Shown here: positions 22,976 to 35,520 of the stretch, piece after piece | How positions within the stretch are numbered: position 1 is the first letter of the stretch | Layout of the letters: each line of letters opens with the position of its first letter | Program-made: the position numbers and the translations under genes | Notes under the pieces: generated by a model | Seen by the model: the letters and a program-made list of their open reading frames with translations, nothing else | What the model was told of the DNA's origin: nothing | Database searches by the model: none | Assembly: GCF_020531985.1 (NCBI RefSeq) | Contig: NZ_JAJAVQ010000004.1 | Location: 620,001-684,000 of the forward strand | Source: Rheinheimera aquimaris | GTDB taxonomy: Bacteria > Pseudomonadota > Gammaproteobacteria > Enterobacterales > Alteromonadaceae | Length of the DNA stretch: 64,000 bases | Direction: 5' to 3'

Positions 22976-23536
22976 GTGGGTAACAATATACTTCTGGTAA
23001 CAGATATTTTCGGTAACTGCAGCGCGCTGCAGCCCTTGCTGCAAGCTATTACGGCAGCAGGTGATGTGGTGACCATTATCGACCCTTATCAGGGCAAACT
23101 GCAGTGTTTTGCTGACGAGGCAGAGGCTTATCAGGTTTATAGCAGCCAATGTGGCCATGACGCTTATGCCGCCTGTGTTGCACAGGCGCTGACGCAACCC
23201 TGTGCGCTTGCGCTGGGCTTTAGTGCCGGCGCTACAGCCTTGTGGCGGGCACTCGGTGCAGCCAGTGCCGGGCAAATAACCCGAGCAGTACTGTTTTACC
23301 CCGGGCAAATTCATCAGCATCTTGCCGTTACACCAAAGCTGCCGGTGCAGGTTGTTTTTGGTCACAGCGAACCGCATTTTGCTGTGGCAGCTATCTGCAA
23401 AGAGCTTAGCCAGAACCCCGGTATAACTGCAGAGCACACAGCCTACGGCCACGGTTTTATGAATCCTGCATCAAAGGCGTTTGACAGCGAGGGCTATCAG
23501 TGTAACGTCAACATGCTTATAGCATTGTTGGGCTAG
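22976..23536 (+). CDS. Dienelactone-hydrolase-like alpha/beta hydrolase
   Basis: Protein of 186 residues. The nucleophile elbow is LGFSAGATALW, a late segment PVQVVFGHSEPHF may carry the acid, and YGHGFMNP the histidine, in the order expected for a small dienelactone hydrolase fold. The start is GTG at 22976, five bases after AGGTG; no in-frame ATG lies nearby. The function is unknown. It is isolated from its neighbours. Confidence 0.65.
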   Translation: MGNNILLVTDIFGNCSALQPLLQAITAAGDVVTIIDPYQGKLQCFADEAEAYQVYSSQCGHDAYAACVAQALTQPCALALGFSAGATALWRALGAASAGQITRAVLFYPGQIHQHLAVTPKLPVQVVFGHSEPHFAVAAICKELSQNPGITAEHTAYGHGFMNPASKAFDSEGYQCNVNMLIALLG

Positions 23537-23842
23537 GTCGCAATATTAAGGATATTTGGCATCAAGCATGTCAAATGCAGCTATTGCAATACTAAATTTA
23601 GCCCCATTTCTCTGAGTCAGATTGAACAGTTATATATTGCGACTGCTCTCAACCCGCAGTGAAGCAGCGTGTTATCTGAGCATGCTAATAGCATAAAACG
23701 TTATGTTATTGTTAATTATGCCGGCTTCCAGTATTGTATTTTAAACTGACCTTGGATAATTTCGGCAAAACATTAACCCGGTTTTATTACAACTTCGTTT
23801 GCAGTAGAGATCAGGTATGTCAGACTTTACAGGATGTATTGT
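23537..23842. other. Intergenic region with a 10-base inverted repeat
   Basis: This 306-base region contains no coding frame I can support. GTCGCAATAT directly after the stop codon (23537-23546) is repeated inverted without mismatch as ATATTGCGAC (23634-23643). The structure spans 107 bases and could be a long hairpin, a terminator or a MITE-like remnant. The remainder is AT-rich and probably holds the promoter of the next gene. Confidence 0.4.
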
Positions 23843-24610
23843 ATGAAAGTATTTTCAATTTTATTAATGGCTTTTTTAATTTCATTTAGTCATTTATCAC
23901 AGGCGAACGTCGATGAAATAGGCGGTTACAGAGTGCTTGTAACGAGTTCATTAGATGAGAATGGGATGCCAGTAGATGAACTTGAATCTATTCATTTCGA
24001 TCACAAGTTGTTCTACGTTTTCTCAGAATGGAACCTACCAGCAGGCGAATATAGATACAGTTGTATCATTTATGATGGAGAGCGGCGGGTAGTTAATTCC
24101 CAATTTAATACTTTCAATTCTGACGGCAGTAATTTCAATTTTTGGTGTTCACACTACTTAAATAAAAGCACTGATAAACCAGGAAGTTGGTATGCAGAAA
24201 TGGGTATAGAAGGTTATGGTTCTGCTGCTATATATTTCTCCGTCAGCGAAGATGATATTAGAAAATCGTTAACTGGCGATTGGGGTTGGAGTGATCAGAT
24301 AGATAGTTGTAAATCAGAGCATGCTATTACCATATCGTTTAATGATGCCGGTACTAAGATGTACCACACATCCAAATCTGGATTACATCTATCAACCAGC
24401 ACAGTGCAATATGAAAAAATTATTTATTCGATTCTATCTGAGGGTGATAAATATTTACGCACAATAGTGATTAATGAAGCGCAGAAAACAGACGATGGAG
24501 AAATGTTTCTCTGGGACTTAATCCTACTTGATGATGAGTCATTTTGTTGGAAGCAGTCTGAATGGCCTGAAGGGCATTGCACTGCAAAATTGCTAAAGTG
24601 TAGTGAGTGA
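23843..24610 (+). CDS. Hypothetical exported protein, AT-rich
   Basis: Protein of 255 residues with a signal peptide (KVFSILLMAFLISFSHLSQA). The ATG at 23843 was chosen because AGGA lies eight bases upstream; another ATG three codons earlier overlaps that site. The mature part is rich in Tyr, Trp, Asp and Ser with three or four cysteines and looks like a beta-rich secreted domain (GSWYAEMGIEGYGSAAIYF). I do not recognise the family. Codon use is clearly more AT-rich than in its neighbours, and inverted repeats lie just after the preceding stop and just after its own stop, which suggests acquired DNA. Confidence 0.6.
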   Translation: MKVFSILLMAFLISFSHLSQANVDEIGGYRVLVTSSLDENGMPVDELESIHFDHKLFYVFSEWNLPAGEYRYSCIIYDGERRVVNSQFNTFNSDGSNFNFWCSHYLNKSTDKPGSWYAEMGIEGYGSAAIYFSVSEDDIRKSLTGDWGWSDQIDSCKSEHAITISFNDAGTKMYHTSKSGLHLSTSTVQYEKIIYSILSEGDKYLRTIVINEAQKTDDGEMFLWDLILLDDESFCWKQSEWPEGHCTAKLLKCSE

Positions 24611-24638
24611 GTTTAAGCAGGCCGTAAGACAAAATCAT

Positions 24639-24681
24639 GACGAGCGGCTGACAGTATTTACTTGCCAGCCTGCAGCTCGTC
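24639..24681. other. Bulged stem-loop after the exported protein gene
   Basis: GACGAGC (24639-24645) pairs with GCTCGTC (24675-24681), and inside it GGCTG (24646-24650) pairs with CAGCC (24666-24670), leaving a four-base bulge on one side. It begins 28 bases after the stop codon at 24610. It may be a terminator without a T run. Apart from this, 24611-24847 holds nothing I can identify. Confidence 0.35.
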
Positions 24682-24847
24682 CCAACATAAACTGCAATGC
24701 ACCATGAGTAGAGTCTTTTCATAACGTTTGGACAATTCAGATCTGGGGCTTGAGTTTTGCCTTGGTGAAACGAATGCGTGCTTGATTGTGTCACCAAGTG
24801 TTTAAGTGTTCCCTAACACAGCGACTATAGCCATTTATTGACGTAGC

Positions 24848-31108: not shown

Positions 31109-31741
31109 TTAACAGCCTAAGCCGCGCATAAACAGCGCTACATAACTATCCAGCGGCTTTGTACTTTGCTGCAGCCGCGCGCGGCTAACCGCGCCTTCCC
31201 AGCCAATCCAGAAAAACTCGGCCAGCGCATCACAATCAGCCGTTAGCGCTAACTCACGTGCTTCCTGTGCTTCCCGCAGGCAGTTCGCAATACGCTGCTG
31301 CCAGCTGTTTAGAATAGCTATCAGCACCGGGCGAAAACTGTCGGGTAACAAATCTACTTCCTGGCCTAAGTTACCCACCAGACAGCCGCGTTTAAACTGA
31401 TGCCTGGCAATACCGTGTTTGGCATCATCAACAAAATTACTAATGCGTTTAAGCGGCGTATAGGCTTTGTCCAGCAAACAGCTATCAAGCTTGCAGGCAA
31501 AGTAGTTGGCGTAGCTGTTTAGTACCGCATGGCCAAAGGTTTCTTTGCTTTGAAAGTAAAAATAAAACGAGCCTTTCGGTACACCGGCTTTTTTCAGAAT
31601 TTTATCCAGGCCCGAGGCGGTAAAACCGATTTCGGTTAAATGCTCCAGCCCGCTTCGAATAAGTTCAGCGCGGATATCCCGATCTTGTGCGGCCGCTTTG
31701 GGCGGCCGGCCCCGGCGAGGTGTGGTGTGTAATGTAGTCAT
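31109..31741 (-). CDS. TetR/AcrR regulator, AcuR-like
   Basis: TetR family repressor of 210 residues. An N-terminal basic tail RRGRPPK is followed by the helix-turn-helix (ELIRSGLEHLTEIGFTASGLDKILKKAGVPKGSFYFYFQSKETF). The ligand domain carries KRGCLVGNLGQEV, common in the NemR/AcuR branch. A matching operator is found upstream of itself and of acuI, so it probably represses both and is relieved by an electrophilic metabolite (inference). AcuR is the best guess, NemR-like the alternative. Confidence 0.85.
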   Translation of the reverse strand: MTTLHTTPRRGRPPKAAAQDRDIRAELIRSGLEHLTEIGFTASGLDKILKKAGVPKGSFYFYFQSKETFGHAVLNSYANYFACKLDSCLLDKAYTPLKRISNFVDDAKHGIARHQFKRGCLVGNLGQEVDLLPDSFRPVLIAILNSWQQRIANCLREAQEARELALTADCDALAEFFWIGWEGAVSRARLQQSTKPLDSYVALFMRGLGC

Positions 31742-31768: not shown

Positions 31769-31807
31769 AAAATAGCATTAGACAATAGTCGGGGTATTAA
31801 ACGATGC

Positions 31808-31981
31808 TGGTTTAGTGAACGTCAGTTGCTGGTAAATAATATTGATATCGCTACGCTTAACGGCGCGCAGTCACACTACACGCTGGATACCGGCAAACAT
31901 CAAACCTACTCTGTAACGTTGTTTGCTGCCGTTTTGCTTAAGTTAGTTTTCAGTCATTTTCACGCTTTCTATCCCGTCTAG
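31808..31981 (+). pseudogene. Possible gene remnant at the island edge
   Basis: A 57-codon open stretch without start codon encodes a host-like segment LLVNNIDIATLNG, followed by SHYTLDTGKHQ. This resembles the end of a beta-rich domain where a surface loop ends in GKHQ. It stops at TAG 31979. It may be the tail of a gene broken when the adjacent AT-rich island arrived. This is a weak call. Confidence 0.25.
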
Positions 31982-32310
31982 GCAGTAAAGTGCGATCAGT
32001 TGCATTATTATCGCTTTATTTACATAAGAAACAGTTAGCGAGGGAGTGACAGGAAAACGGCAATATCAGCAAGAAATCAGAAGTTCGTAGGTATTCTTTG
32101 GACCTAGAGTGGCAGTATGGCTTTTACTACTATTAGCGTAAGCATGGTAAAAAAAATGAAATTCAAGGATTTTGAATTATTTAATATCTTTACGATGTTT
32201 GGGTTTCAGGTAAAAGTGGTTGTTGTTGCAGGAATTAAAACTATTTTTTCATAGGTAAATCTAATGAAGTTTTGTTGGTTTTTGCCTAGTTTCCAGAGAA
32301 TATTTATAAC
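31982..32310. other. AT-rich intergenic region before the island genes
   Basis: No coding frame, RNA gene or clear repeat can be supported in these 329 bases. Base composition changes here from the GC-rich host style to the AT-rich style of the following three genes. The promoter of the island genes is probably located here. Confidence 0.4.
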
Positions 32311-32973
32311 ATGGCAGTGTTGAAGTTTGTTGCTCATAGCAAAAAGGCAATAAGTATTGCTTTAAGTCACGGATGGAGCCCGGGGGCTCGATATACAAAC
32401 ATGAGAGATGTAAAGACATTTAGATTCGAGGGTGTTGGTTTTCTTGATATTGACTGGAAGCACTATTGCTTTGGTCGCCACTTAGATGCTGCGCAAAAAT
32501 ATAAACCTAAGATTACGATGGCGCGAGATGTTGAGTGTATTTTCCAACTTGACAAGATTTTGCGAGAAGCTGAGATATTATTAAAGCACTCTGATCAAGT
32601 TGCAATTGTACCGAAGGATACACAGTTAAATGGAAGGTTATCGGAGCTAATTCCTAGGGAGTTTATTTTAGCTTACAGTGTTCCAACTAAATACGGCGGC
32701 ACTTCAGTATCAATAGAAAGTTTTGACCGGCCAGTTCATCTCCTTGGCGGGAGGCCCGATGTGCAAAGAGCGCTGGCTGGTAAGCTTAAAGTCTATTCAA
32801 TGGATTGCAATAGATTTACACTCGATGCACGTTTCGGAGATTATTTTGATGGAAAGAAATTTAGACCACACTCTGCAGGTGGCTATGAAAATTGTCTGAT
32901 AGACTCGATAAAAAATATTAATTCTTTATGGCATGACTATATTGTCCATGAAGACGTAAAAAATTTGTATTAA
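32311..32973 (+). CDS. DUF6610-like protein with TGT-like core
   Basis: Soluble protein of 220 residues. It resembles the DUF6610 family as I recall it from archaea and bacteria: HSKKAISIALSHGWSPGARY, FLDIDWKHY, AYSVPTKYGGT and PVHLLGGRPDVQ. The segment from HLLGG to MDCNRFTLDARFGDYF looks like the end of the barrel in tRNA-guanine transglycosylases, where an Asp-Cys motif carries the nucleophile (Asp165 here). No zinc-binding cysteines follow. A base-exchange or nucleic-acid role is therefore possible but only inferred. The ribosome-binding site is weak. The gene is AT-rich and starts a three-gene island. Confidence 0.6.
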   Translation: MAVLKFVAHSKKAISIALSHGWSPGARYTNMRDVKTFRFEGVGFLDIDWKHYCFGRHLDAAQKYKPKITMARDVECIFQLDKILREAEILLKHSDQVAIVPKDTQLNGRLSELIPREFILAYSVPTKYGGTSVSIESFDRPVHLLGGRPDVQRALAGKLKVYSMDCNRFTLDARFGDYFDGKKFRPHSAGGYENCLIDSIKNINSLWHDYIVHEDVKNLY

Positions 32974-32987
32974 CTGGTGGTGTGAAA

Positions 32988-33611
32988 ATGGCTTATAGAG
33001 AAGAATTACTACTTAGGATGTACGACCAACTATTTAATGACATCAACAGACATATTATGGTCGTTTGGCAGAGCGTTGGAGTTTTGGTCGGTGCATTCGC
33101 TATTTTTGCATTAGTTGAGAAAAATATTATATCAAATGATATTGCCTCTAGTATTATTATGCTGCTTTGTTCTTGGTTGATTGCTCATTTGTTCGATGCT
33201 GCATATTGGTATAACAGAAATTTAGTTATGATTGCAAATATTGAAAGGCAATTTCTGGTTAAAGCTGATCTTAAAGAAATTCATTACTATTTTGGGGCTC
33301 ACCGCCCGAATAATAAAATGATTGAGCATCTTCGTCTTCAGCTGGCTCTCGGCGTTGGATTAGGATTTATCGTGTTAGCTTATCATTTTTATGAACGGGT
33401 TGTACCTGGATTTAATTCTTCCCTAGAGAACTTCGATCCTGTAAGAGCAACACCATATGTTGTTGTTATTTTTTCTTGTGTTTATCTATATAAATTGAAA
33501 GGAAAACTAAAGGCAAAGTATCAAGAATTTATAATTAATTCACCTGGTAAAGTTGTGGATGCTTCTGAAGTTAGTTTTGGTGTTGGACATGGCCACGAAC
33601 CAAAAGTATAA
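32988..33611 (+). CDS. Four-helix membrane protein in the island
   Basis: Membrane protein of about 207 residues with predicted helices at about 24-43, 52-72, 116-136 and 152-170. Soluble stretches contain YWYNRNLVMIANIERQFL and YFGAHRPNNKM. The ATG at 32988 was chosen: GGTGG lies seven bases before it, while the in-frame GTG at 32982 is too close. It is separated from the DUF6610-like gene by 14 bases, so the two are co-transcribed. The family is unknown to me. Small multi-helix proteins in such islands often serve as membrane effectors, but nothing in the sequence proves this. Confidence 0.6.
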   Translation: MAYREELLLRMYDQLFNDINRHIMVVWQSVGVLVGAFAIFALVEKNIISNDIASSIIMLLCSWLIAHLFDAAYWYNRNLVMIANIERQFLVKADLKEIHYYFGAHRPNNKMIEHLRLQLALGVGLGFIVLAYHFYERVVPGFNSSLENFDPVRATPYVVVIFSCVYLYKLKGKLKAKYQEFIINSPGKVVDASEVSFGVGHGHEPKV

Positions 33612-33792
33612 ACGAGTTAGTGTAATGATAAATGGGTGGTAGAATATTGTATTTATTATGTTTGCATTAAAGGTTGTTGTTGTGGGGAGGCTGAGTGTCT
33701 AGTGACAAAAGGCAAGACCTGAAACTGAATTTTTTAAGATTGCAAAATTAATCAGAAGAAAAAGTTAGTAAAAGCCAACTTAAGAGGCTGTT

Positions 33793-35085
33793 TTGAAAAT
33801 AACTAGCACCATTAAAAAGGGCAATGAGCTTGAAGACGTGATTTTCAAAATATTGTCTTCAGATATCGAAAACGGCTTTTTTTGGGCACCTTCAGCATGC
33901 TGCAAAATTTTTCAAAAGAAAGGTTATTATTCCAAAGACCGAGAGAAAAATATAATATTTGATATATCAATAGAAGTTTTCCTTCCCGGTAAAGATGCGT
34001 ATTCATTATTAGTTCTAGTTGAATGTAAAAATTATAATCATAAAGTACCAGTAGATGATGTTGAAGAGTTTTACTCTAAAGTTCAGCAAGTTTCAGGGGC
34101 CAATATTAAAGCTGTAGTTGCTTCCAGCGATGCATTGCAAGATGGAGCTTTTAAATTCTCAAAATCTAAAGGTATTGGATTTCTTCGTTATTTTAGTGAG
34201 AAAAATAGCGAGTGGGTTTTAACTCGATCTCCCTCTTGCATAGGTCGCAGTGTTAAAGAAACAGAGCATGCATCAATTTCGCAAGCCATATTGCAGCAAG
34301 ATTTCGTCGGTAAGGGATTTGAATTTTACTGTTTTAATGGTATTGATTTTACAAACTCGATACATTATTTCTTTGAAAGACTTATGCTGTCAGACGTCCC
34401 AGAGTCTCAAATAGGTCAGTTCAAAAAAATACGCACAGATATTCTTATTCCAAGATCTTCAGTTTCATATGTTGATTTCAGCTTTATTGAAAGTAAAAGT
34501 AATGAACTGCTTAAGTTGATAGGTTATTTCAATGGTTTTGTGCGTGACGACAAATTAGTTGACGTTGCAAAGGAAAAATATGGCTTATCGTTGGATCTTG
34601 GTGCTGAATTGCCGCTTGGAGTGCTTGGGACGGTAGACTTTCAGAGAAACGCTATTTGTGTGGACAGCAATCAGTGCGGAACAAAGGAAAGAGCAAGGTT
34701 TACACTAGCGCATGAGTTAGGGCATTTCATTCTTGGGCATTCTAAGTATATTGAACGCGAGCGCTGTTATAATTCACATTTATCCGAAAGTCGCGACGAC
34801 ATTTCTATAAAAGATATTATGCGATTGGAGTGGCAGGCTAACCAGTTTGCTTCTTGTGTGTTGCTACCAAAGAAAGCTTTTGTTAATGCATTTATCGAGC
34901 AGGCCAACGTAAGGGGTATAAAAAATCGGGGTTTTGGTGCTTTATATGTTGATGAACAGCGTTGTAATATATCTGCTCTTAACTTAGTCACGGCTTCATT
35001 GATGAAGCAGTTTAACGTTTCAAAAACCGTAATTGTTATTAGGTTGAAGCAATTAGGTATTATACGTGAACGATTCCCTAAATAG
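33793..35085 (+). CDS. Mrr-type nuclease fused to ImmA/IrrE metalloprotease
   Basis: Protein of 430 residues joining two domains rarely seen together. Residues 8-140 form a PD-(D/E)xK restriction-endonuclease-like domain of Mrr type: Asp57 in FDISIEV, Glu77 and Lys79 in VLVECKNYNH, then IKAVVASSDALQDGA. Residues 270-400 form an ImmA/IrrE protease: HELGH (His307, Glu308, His311) with the third ligand Glu346 in EWQANQFAS and VLLPKKAF. A linker of about 120 residues (150-270) is unassigned. The start is TTG 33793 with AAGAGG five bases upstream. It is 181 bases after the membrane protein gene. It may cut foreign DNA while the protease cleaves a regulator (inference). Confidence 0.75.
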   Translation: MKITSTIKKGNELEDVIFKILSSDIENGFFWAPSACCKIFQKKGYYSKDREKNIIFDISIEVFLPGKDAYSLLVLVECKNYNHKVPVDDVEEFYSKVQQVSGANIKAVVASSDALQDGAFKFSKSKGIGFLRYFSEKNSEWVLTRSPSCIGRSVKETEHASISQAILQQDFVGKGFEFYCFNGIDFTNSIHYFFERLMLSDVPESQIGQFKKIRTDILIPRSSVSYVDFSFIESKSNELLKLIGYFNGFVRDDKLVDVAKEKYGLSLDLGAELPLGVLGTVDFQRNAICVDSNQCGTKERARFTLAHELGHFILGHSKYIERERCYNSHLSESRDDISIKDIMRLEWQANQFASCVLLPKKAFVNAFIEQANVRGIKNRGFGALYVDEQRCNISALNLVTASLMKQFNVSKTVIVIRLKQLGIIRERFPK

Positions 35086-35098
35086 AAAATGAAATAGA

Positions 35099-35128
35099 AG
35101 ATGGGGTCGGAGCAATTTAGATGTAAAT
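35099..35128 (+). repeat. Possible REP-type element remnant
   Basis: The stretch beginning GATGGGGTCGGAGC directly after the island resembles the GGGGTCGGAGC-type sequences that accompany Y1/RAYT transposases in marine gammaproteobacteria, as far as I recall. No inverted partner or transposase was found. It may mark the island boundary. Confidence 0.25.
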
Positions 35129-35139
35129 GACCAGAGATT

Positions 35140-35520
35140 TTGAAATTGCATAATAACAATACAAAACAGCAATTAATTGCACTGGAACAACTGCTGGTGC
35201 AGCCCGCTACGCGGTTATCTGCCGAGCTGCTTAACTGTTATTTAGCTGATGATTTCTACGAAATTGGTGCCAGCGGCCGCTGTTTTGGTAAAGCTGATGT
35301 GCTGGAACGTTTGCCCACTGAAACGCCGCCGGTGATTACTCAGCAAGATTTTGACTGCCGAGTGTTAGCCGACGGGCTGGCGCAATTGACTTACCGCGCC
35401 ACGATACAGCGCGAGGGGGACTATACAGTGGCGTATTCAATACGAAGCTCAATCTACCGTTTTGATGGTGAAAACTGGCAGATGATTTTTCACCAGGGCA
35501 CCGCATGCGAGCCGTTTTGA
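35140..35520 (+). CDS. DUF4440/SnoaL-like protein
   Basis: Protein of 126 residues with a single NTF2-like fold: LIALEQLLVQPATRLSAELLNCYLADDFYEIGASG and the final strand VAYSIRSSIYRFDGENWQMIFHQGT. The likely role is a small ligand-binding or isomerase-like protein, unknown in detail. No ATG is available; TTG at 35140 (or TTG 35146) must serve as the start. This is odd and suggests that the island insertion replaced the original 5-prime end. Codon use returns to the host style here. Confidence 0.7.
   Translation: MKLHNNNTKQQLIALEQLLVQPATRLSAELLNCYLADDFYEIGASGRCFGKADVLERLPTETPPVITQQDFDCRVLADGLAQLTYRATIQREGDYTVAYSIRSSIYRFDGENWQMIFHQGTACEPF

What the first reader, a model, noticed from the sequence alone, without database searches (positions are those of the whole stretch)
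31770..35139. AT-rich three-gene island: candidate new defence or conflict system
Three + strand genes (DUF6610-like, four-helix membrane protein, nuclease-metalloprotease fusion) differ in base composition from both flanks. They sit between a possible host gene remnant and a gene lacking an ATG start, and a GGGGTCGGAGC-like sequence follows. A nucleotide- or nucleic-acid-type enzyme, a membrane protein and a nuclease with a regulatory-type protease is an arrangement that fits anti-phage systems. I know no described system with these three parts.
Basis: partly seen in the sequence, partly recalled or inferred. Interest (0 to 1): 0.75.

Follow-up and report, generated by a model that had tools for sequence, protein, structure and literature searches.

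The report
Two-gene transglycosylase-like defence candidate
A mobile pair of genes, one for a small enzyme shaped like those that swap guanine for a modified base and one for a membrane protein, sits in a chromosomal slot where related bacteria keep known anti-phage systems, and may be an undescribed phage-defence module.

Summary
The AT-rich island is real (GC 0.35-0.40; window 0.50), but it is not one three-gene system. DUF6610 and the membrane protein form a tightly linked pair, found together in 9 of 9 loci with the short (about 220 aa) DUF6610 form. The nuclease-metalloprotease gene is absent from the fetched flanks of the 8 other pairs, so it looks like separate cargo.

The site is a defence hotspot: upstream of the same DUF4440 gene, 7 of 11 congener loci scanned (17 exist) hold a known system, such as retrons, Hachiman, Kiwa or DRT3.

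DUF6610 models at pLDDT 94 as a small TIM-type barrel; 24 of 31 PDB chains at E<=0.001 are tRNA-guanine transglycosylases, though KPHMT has the best E-value. Three Asp are invariant in 17 of 17 homologues. Viral relatives lie in preQ0 gene clusters, including that of HVTV-1.

Best reading: a minimal two-gene anti-phage (or element-protecting) module that couples a DpdA-like guanine-exchange enzyme to a membrane partner. The fold is well supported, defence rests on genomic context only, and the mechanism is inferred.

The parts
31109..31741 (-). TetR-type regulator, left border of the hotspot
   Evidence: Pfam TetR_C_13, TetR_N; with the ADH gene it lies on the far side of the cargo also in G013 and G014
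31814..31930 (+). remnant of a host gene (C-terminal part)
   Evidence: 39 aa, 85% identical to a 506-aa reading frame of congener G011
32311..32973 (+). DUF6610 protein, minimal TGT/DpdA-like TIM-type barrel; invariant D46, D73, D165
   Evidence: Pfam 3e-50; AF2 pLDDT 94.4; Foldseek; 17-sequence alignment
32982..33611 (+). membrane protein with four long helices, partner of DUF6610
   Evidence: directly downstream of DUF6610 in 9 of 9 loci with the short form; AF2 model, pLDDT 72.9; hydropathy
33793..35085 (+). Mrr-type nuclease fused to an M78 (ImmA/IrrE-type) metalloprotease; separate cargo
   Evidence: Pfam; absent from the flanks of the 8 other pairs; full-length relatives without the pair in Acinetobacter and Spirosoma records
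35140..35520 (+). DUF4440 gene, right border of the hotspot, TTG start
   Evidence: Pfam 1.8e-15; matched in 18 of 31 genus genomes, own included; start codons

Best explanation
The island is accessory cargo in a genus-wide defence hotspot and holds two independent items. The main one is a mobile two-gene module: a minimal TGT/DpdA-like enzyme (DUF6610) and a cognate inner-membrane protein. Most likely it acts against incoming phage: DUF6610 binds a guanine, attacks its glycosidic bond with D165, and exchanges it for a 7-deazaguanine from the host queuosine pathway (or removes it) in phage nucleic acid; the membrane protein anchors the enzyme where DNA enters, or is the effector that it switches on. 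Shown: the pair and its tight linkage, the hotspot, the modelled fold, the invariant residues, the linkage of some relatives to preQ0 genes. Inferred: catalysis, substrate, defence, role of the membrane protein. The second item, the nuclease-metalloprotease gene, is a stand-alone defence candidate.
For: Hotspot: 7 of 11 congener loci scanned (17 exist) hold known defence systems 5' of the same DUF4440 gene; 0 of 10 host proteins around the island match PADLOC. Pair: 9 of 9 loci with the short DUF6610 form; stop/start offset -4 in five of nine; in 369 class genomes both genes occur in the same 2. Mobile: beside phage repressors, between tail genes, beside integrases. Neighbours in PADLOC candidate families in L002 and L084. 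Fold: pLDDT 94.4, 24 of 31 PDB chains at E<=0.001 are TGT, best TMq 0.66. D46, D73, D165 invariant in 17 of 17. Relatives: HVTV-1 gene 69 within a preQ0 cluster, Rinkes gene 1, a DUF6610-GNAT gene beside a Vut_1 transporter. Five of five pair-bearing bacterial genomes checked have TGT and QueC.
Against: No experiment. The best Foldseek E-value is a KPHMT, not a TGT (2.1e-5 against 4.5e-4), and TGT chains in the PDB are redundant. Sequence profiles do not reach significance. The Zn-binding Cys motif of TGT is absent. QueC and TGT are common: 12 and 14 of 14 control genomes. No preQ0 gene is annotated in the fetched surroundings of HF2 or the Natronosalvus plasmid. Rinkes also has a dpdA, and the 2019 paper suggests that the host DpdA may act on HVTV-1 DNA. 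No fold match for the membrane protein. G545 and G779 pairs show no defence or mobile neighbours that I recognised. Proteins for PADLOC were chosen by eye, and 6 of 17 hotspot loci were not scanned.
Confidence: 0.5

Rival explanations
1. Anti-restriction: the pair modifies the DNA of the prophage or island that carries it with a 7-deazaguanine, so that the element survives restriction in a new host, as viral 7-deazaguanine systems do; the membrane protein helps at DNA entry.
For: Relatives lie in viral preQ0 clusters; 7-deazaguanines protect phage DNA (PMC6884629, passages); three of nine pairs are on IMG/VR contigs, and two others lie near integrases.
Against: The pair carries no preQ0 genes of its own, the haloviral and Rinkes relatives examined have no such membrane partner, and in the window it lies in a slot otherwise used by defence systems.
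Confidence: 0.2
2. Signal and effector: DUF6610 does not modify nucleic acid but acts on a nucleotide or base (hydrolysis or exchange) when phage infects, and the membrane protein is a channel-like effector that stops growth (abortive infection).
For: Enzyme plus membrane protein with tight gene linkage; a nucleoside deoxyribosyltransferase retron (G028) and Kiwa with its membrane subunit (G011) occur in the same hotspot.
Against: Relatives point to 7-deazaguanine in DNA; no known channel fold was found for the membrane protein.
Confidence: 0.15
3. A three-gene system as first read: DUF6610, membrane protein and nuclease-protease act together.
For: Same strand, same low GC, adjacent; in G1052 a different Mrr-type nuclease also follows the pair directly.
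Against: The third protein's family is not found beside the 8 other pairs; the G1052 nuclease is not significantly similar; 181 bases separate the second and third genes here; full-length relatives lie without the pair.
Confidence: 0.06
4. Import or salvage: the membrane protein takes up a queuosine precursor and DUF6610 is a tRNA enzyme; no role in conflict.
For: A DUF6610-GNAT gene lies beside a Vut_1 transporter in L085.
Against: The membrane protein does not match Vut_1; five of five genomes checked have QueC and an ordinary TGT; hotspot and prophage location.
Confidence: 0.04

Closest known systems
DpdA, 7-deazaguanine DNA transglycosylase of phages and of bacterial Dpd restriction-modification islands
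   Same: TGT-type barrel by fold comparison; DUF6610 genes beside preQ0 genes in HVTV-1 and Rinkes; aspartate-centred motif
   Different: Much divergent in sequence; about 220 aa; dedicated membrane partner; no preQ0 or Dpd restriction genes beside the pair. DpdA4 of archaeal viruses (doi 10.1093/nar/gkad657, recalled, not held) may be this very family
tRNA-guanine transglycosylase (TGT)
   Same: Fold (TMq up to 0.66); Asp at the same barrel strands (inference)
   Different: No Zn-binding Cys motif, far shorter; the host has its own TGT
BRC systems (BREX-related, with TGT and GNAT) of PMC12839542
   Same: TGT homologues, sometimes fused to GNAT, in a defence operon (passages); a DUF6610-GNAT fusion exists in L085
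   Different: Multi-gene systems with PglZ, HerA and others; none of these matched in the window's island
Kiwa (KwaA membrane protein plus KwaB)
   Same: Two-gene plan with one membrane protein; occupies the same hotspot in G011
   Different: No match of either protein to Kiwa models; membrane protein not similar to the G011 KwaA
CapP / RmrA metalloproteases (for the third gene)
   Same: M78 domain matches CapP (2.4e-17) and RmrA (7.8e-13)
   Different: Matches cover the protease part only (about residues 279-370); an Mrr-type nuclease is fused and no repressor gene lies beside it

Membership tests
TGT/DpdA superfamily (DUF6610) | TIM-type barrel most like TGT | tested here: met
   24 of 31 PDB chains at E<=0.001 are TGT, best TMq 0.66; five KPHMT and two aldolases also pass, KPHMT with the best E-value
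TGT/DpdA superfamily (DUF6610) | Active-site Asp on strands 3, 4 and 8 | tested here: met
   D46, D73, D165 invariant in 17 of 17, in or just after the 3rd, 4th and 8th strands of the model; TGT residue numbers recalled; no superposition was available
TGT/DpdA superfamily (DUF6610) | Significant sequence-profile similarity | tested here: inconclusive
   hhalign probability 4% to DpdA and 0.2% to TGT, positive control DpdA-TGT only 2%; motif scan in register in 5 of 5 TGT and 4 of 7 DpdA, but not above background scores
TGT/DpdA superfamily (DUF6610) | Zn-binding CxCxxC site of TGT | tested here: not met
   present in the host TGT, absent from the DUF6610 sequences
TGT/DpdA superfamily (DUF6610) | Base-exchange activity | not testable with these tools
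   needs biochemistry
Dpd restriction-modification island | dpdB, dpdC and restriction genes beside dpdA | tested here: not met
   no such families among the window's neighbouring proteins; only the near neighbourhood was looked at
Any system in PADLOC-DB 2.0.0 | match of DUF6610 or of the membrane protein to a model | tested here: not met
   0 families at E<=1 for both
Defence hotspot cargo | same chromosomal site holds different known defence systems in relatives | tested here: met
   7 of 11 loci scanned, of 17 existing; proteins chosen by eye; 0 of 10 host proteins as control
Kiwa | KwaA and KwaB models | tested here: not met
   no match; BLASTP with the G011 KwaA not significant

The most novel reading that the evidence does not exclude
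A two-gene immune system in which a minimal DpdA-like enzyme, shared with viral DNA-modification pathways, uses the host's queuosine precursor to alter phage nucleic acid at the membrane, with a dedicated membrane protein as anchor or effector: base exchange used as a weapon rather than as camouflage.
Probability: 0.28. Interest if true: 0.85.

Novelty: new variant of a known kind. Interest (0 to 1): 0.62.

Why it matters
It gives a testable identity to DUF6610, a name found in no paper of the held library, and ties the family to 7-deazaguanine chemistry. It offers a candidate for the transglycosylase that the 2019 study did not find in HVTV-1 (a later paper, recalled and not held, may already have named it). 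It also nominates a small module that can be cloned, found in a slot where congeners keep known defence systems. If true, chemistry that viruses use to hide their DNA is used against them.

Tried and rejected
Three-gene system: set aside, since the third protein's family is not beside the 8 other pairs; a different Mrr-type nuclease does follow the G1052 pair. GGGGTCGGAGC as a repeat or att site: rejected. Missing ATG as a sign of a broken gene: rejected. Membrane protein as a known family: no Pfam match over cut-off, none in NCBIfam, PADLOC or PDB sequences, two PHROG matches at E 0.09 and 0.26, no fold match (best Foldseek E 0.12). Pair on plasmids or named phages: membrane protein 0 records in both collections; DUF6610 in 1 plasmid record and 52 phage records, by organism name haloviral or mycobacteriophage. 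Pair in E. coli complete genomes: no DNA match. Rfam and tRNA genes in the window: none. Promoter and terminator scan: no clear excess over shuffles. hhalign: underpowered. A weak DUF6610 match in G954 (20.5 bits, under the cut-off of 27) was dropped before counting. Type IV CBASS, where I recall a TGT-like protein: one paper listed for the search, no such name in the passages of PMC13279940, no PADLOC match. Known nuclease-ImmA fusion in defence papers: search listing only, nothing pursued.
Full report
What is there. The window holds three + strand ORFs at 32311-32973, 32982-33611 and 33793-35085, with GC 0.395, 0.348 and 0.364 against 0.498 for the window. The first is DUF6610 (3e-50), the third combines Mrr_cat and Peptidase_M78, and the second has no Pfam match over a cut-off. 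An HELGH motif and an ECK motif are visible in the third protein. On the left lie a TetR and an alcohol dehydrogenase gene, and a scrap (31814-31930) of a host gene whose frame is open over 506 aa in one congener, G011. On the right lies a DUF4440 gene with an ordinary TTG start. The GGGGTCGGAGC sequence is chance.

A defence hotspot. The DUF4440 gene is matched in 18 of 31 genus genomes, own included. I fetched about 6 kb or more of its 5' side from the 17 congeners and scanned 23 proteins from 11 of these loci with PADLOC; the proteins were picked by eye, and six loci (L047, L056, L059, L060, L061, L064) were not scanned. Seven of the 11 hold a known system: retron I-A with ATPase and HNH (G008), HamA and HamB (G024), DUF4297 and HerA (G027), AriA and AriB, weaker (G021), an OLD-like protein plus the NDT and RT of retron II-A (G028), Drt3a and Drt3b (G029), KwaA and KwaB (G011). 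G014 gives a weak PDC-S33 match; the single proteins scanned from G017, G012 and G013 gave none. TetR and ADH lie on the far side of the cargo in G013 and G014, as in the window. Ten host proteins around the window's island gave no PADLOC match at E<=1e-5.

The unit is a pair. A membrane-protein search of genome contigs found Aliidiomarina sedimenti (L002) and Pseudomonas aylmerensis (L003), each with DUF6610 directly upstream. DUF6610 searches found G545, G779, G1052 and three IMG/VR contigs (L006, L007, L008), each with the membrane gene directly downstream. Membrane-profile searches returned the same three viral contigs, and in 369 class genomes the same two genomes as DUF6610 did, own included. 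So 9 of 9 loci with the short form are paired; stop-to-start offsets are -4 in five of them and 8, 11, -8 and -14 in the others. One further bacterial locus over the cut-off, G1147 (L085), is a DUF6610-GNAT fusion without the partner but beside a Vut_1 transporter. The haloviral, Rinkes and Natronosalvus loci examined lack the partner too. The pair is rare: DUF6610 in 2 of 369, 2 of 398, 2 of 246 and 2 of 109 genomes over the cut-off, the membrane protein in 1 of 197 relatives. Relatives of the third protein were not found in the flanks of the 8 other pairs, and its two full-length relatives in the plasmid collection (Acinetobacter and Spirosoma records, about 31-32% identity) have no pair within 8 kb. 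In G1052 another Mrr-type nuclease follows the pair after 27 bases, but it is not significantly similar to the window's third protein.

Mobility. L006 and L007 lie beside phage repressors, L008 between a tail protein and a tail fibre gene, L003 beside an integrase. L084 (G1052) has an integrase about 2 kb upstream and a PDC-S02 nuclease just downstream. L002 has a PDC-M34B, HEPN-type protein upstream and a PDC-S31 protein about 1.2 kb downstream. G545 and G779 show nothing of this kind that I recognised.

What DUF6610 is. AlphaFold2 with 13 sequences gave pLDDT 94.4 and pTM 0.90. The model has ten strands of three or more residues; I read the first eight as the barrel. Foldseek against the PDB found 31 chains at E<=0.001: 24 tRNA-guanine transglycosylases (TMq up to 0.66), five KPHMT (best E, 2.1e-5; TMq about 0.5) and two class II aldolases. 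TGT chains are redundant in the PDB, so 24 is not 24 independent matches. In an alignment of 17 homologues, some of them close to each other, D46, D73, P101, H143, G146, G147, Q152 and D165 never vary. The three Asp lie in or just after strands 3, 4 and 8. In TGT the catalytic or base-binding Asp sit on the same strands (recalled, D102, D156, D280); the own-genome TGT shows TDSGG, FDEC and FDCV in that order. A motif-profile scan put its best window on the MGVG...FDCV motif in 5 of 5 TGTs and on the SVDSxSW-type motif in 4 of 7 DpdAs; but 1 to 19 of 182 background proteins scored at least as high as a TGT, and 11 to 87 as high as a DpdA. hhalign was weak, and so was its positive control. The assignment rests on structure, not on sequence statistics.

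Function links. HVTV-1 gene 69 is DUF6610 (2.7e-56), next to GTP cyclohydrolase and near a radical SAM gene, queD, queC and a 7-cyano-7-deazaguanine reductase. The 2019 paper reports dPreQ1 at about 30% of G in HVTV-1 DNA and no DpdA in that virus, and suggests that the host's DpdA may act there (passages of PMC6884629). Mycobacteriophage Rinkes gene 1 carries DUF6610 beside a dpdA, queC, queD, queE and folE, so there it is not the only transglycosylase candidate. No preQ0 gene is annotated near the DUF6610 genes of HF2 and the Natronosalvus plasmid. I recall a 2023 paper that names DpdA4 of archaeal viruses; it is not held, and no held paper uses that name. Five of five pair-bearing bacterial genomes checked (G000, G545, G779 and those of L002 and L003) have TGT and QueC, as have 14 and 12 of 14 control genomes.

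Mechanism. I commit to a two-gene anti-phage module: the enzyme exchanges guanine in phage nucleic acid for a host queuosine precursor, or removes it, with the membrane protein as anchor or effector. The membrane model (pLDDT 72.9, four long helices) has no fold match, so its role is a guess. The main rivals are anti-restriction for the carrying element, and a membrane effector triggered by the enzyme's product.

Known or new. TGT homologues in defence are described: Dpd islands and BRC systems (passages of PMC12839542). QueC relatives act in type IV CBASS and Qat (passages of PMC13279940). No held paper mentions DUF6610. Three searches for transglycosylase defence systems listed nothing that I recognised as this pair; I saw 20 of 554, 10 of 740 and 1 of 1 listings, by title and start of abstract. 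PADLOC-DB has no match for either protein. Hence a new variant of a known kind, pending a test of function.

Noticed in passing
L085 8211-10421 (G1147): A DUF6610-GNAT fusion gene lies beside a Vut_1 (YhhQ-type) transporter, on a contig with a DnaB-type primase-helicase gene.
   Followed up: partly
L012 1-1302 (Mycobacterium phage Rinkes): Gene 1, annotated as ParB-like, carries DUF6610 in its C-terminal half and precedes a separate dpdA and preQ0 genes.
   Followed up: partly
L010 5608-6768 (Halovirus HVTV-1): Gene 69, a hypothetical protein in the preQ0 cluster, is DUF6610: a candidate for the transglycosylase not found in this virus in 2019.
   Followed up: partly
L084 9916-15534 (G1052): Downstream of the pair: an Mrr-type PDC-S02 nuclease and a 1449-aa protein with no Pfam or PADLOC match, with a P-loop-like GTGKT stretch near its start.
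   Followed up: no
L065 911-2204 (G011): Two genes (293 and 139 aa) downstream of KwaA/KwaB in the hotspot; the 293-aa protein has no PADLOC match, the other was not scanned.
   Followed up: no
L062 614-2655 (G014): A two-gene cargo at the hotspot: one protein with a weak PDC-S33 match, the other with none.
   Followed up: no
window 23500-24700: A second AT-rich dip (GC down to 0.37) around a 258-aa ORF at 23834-24610.
   Followed up: no
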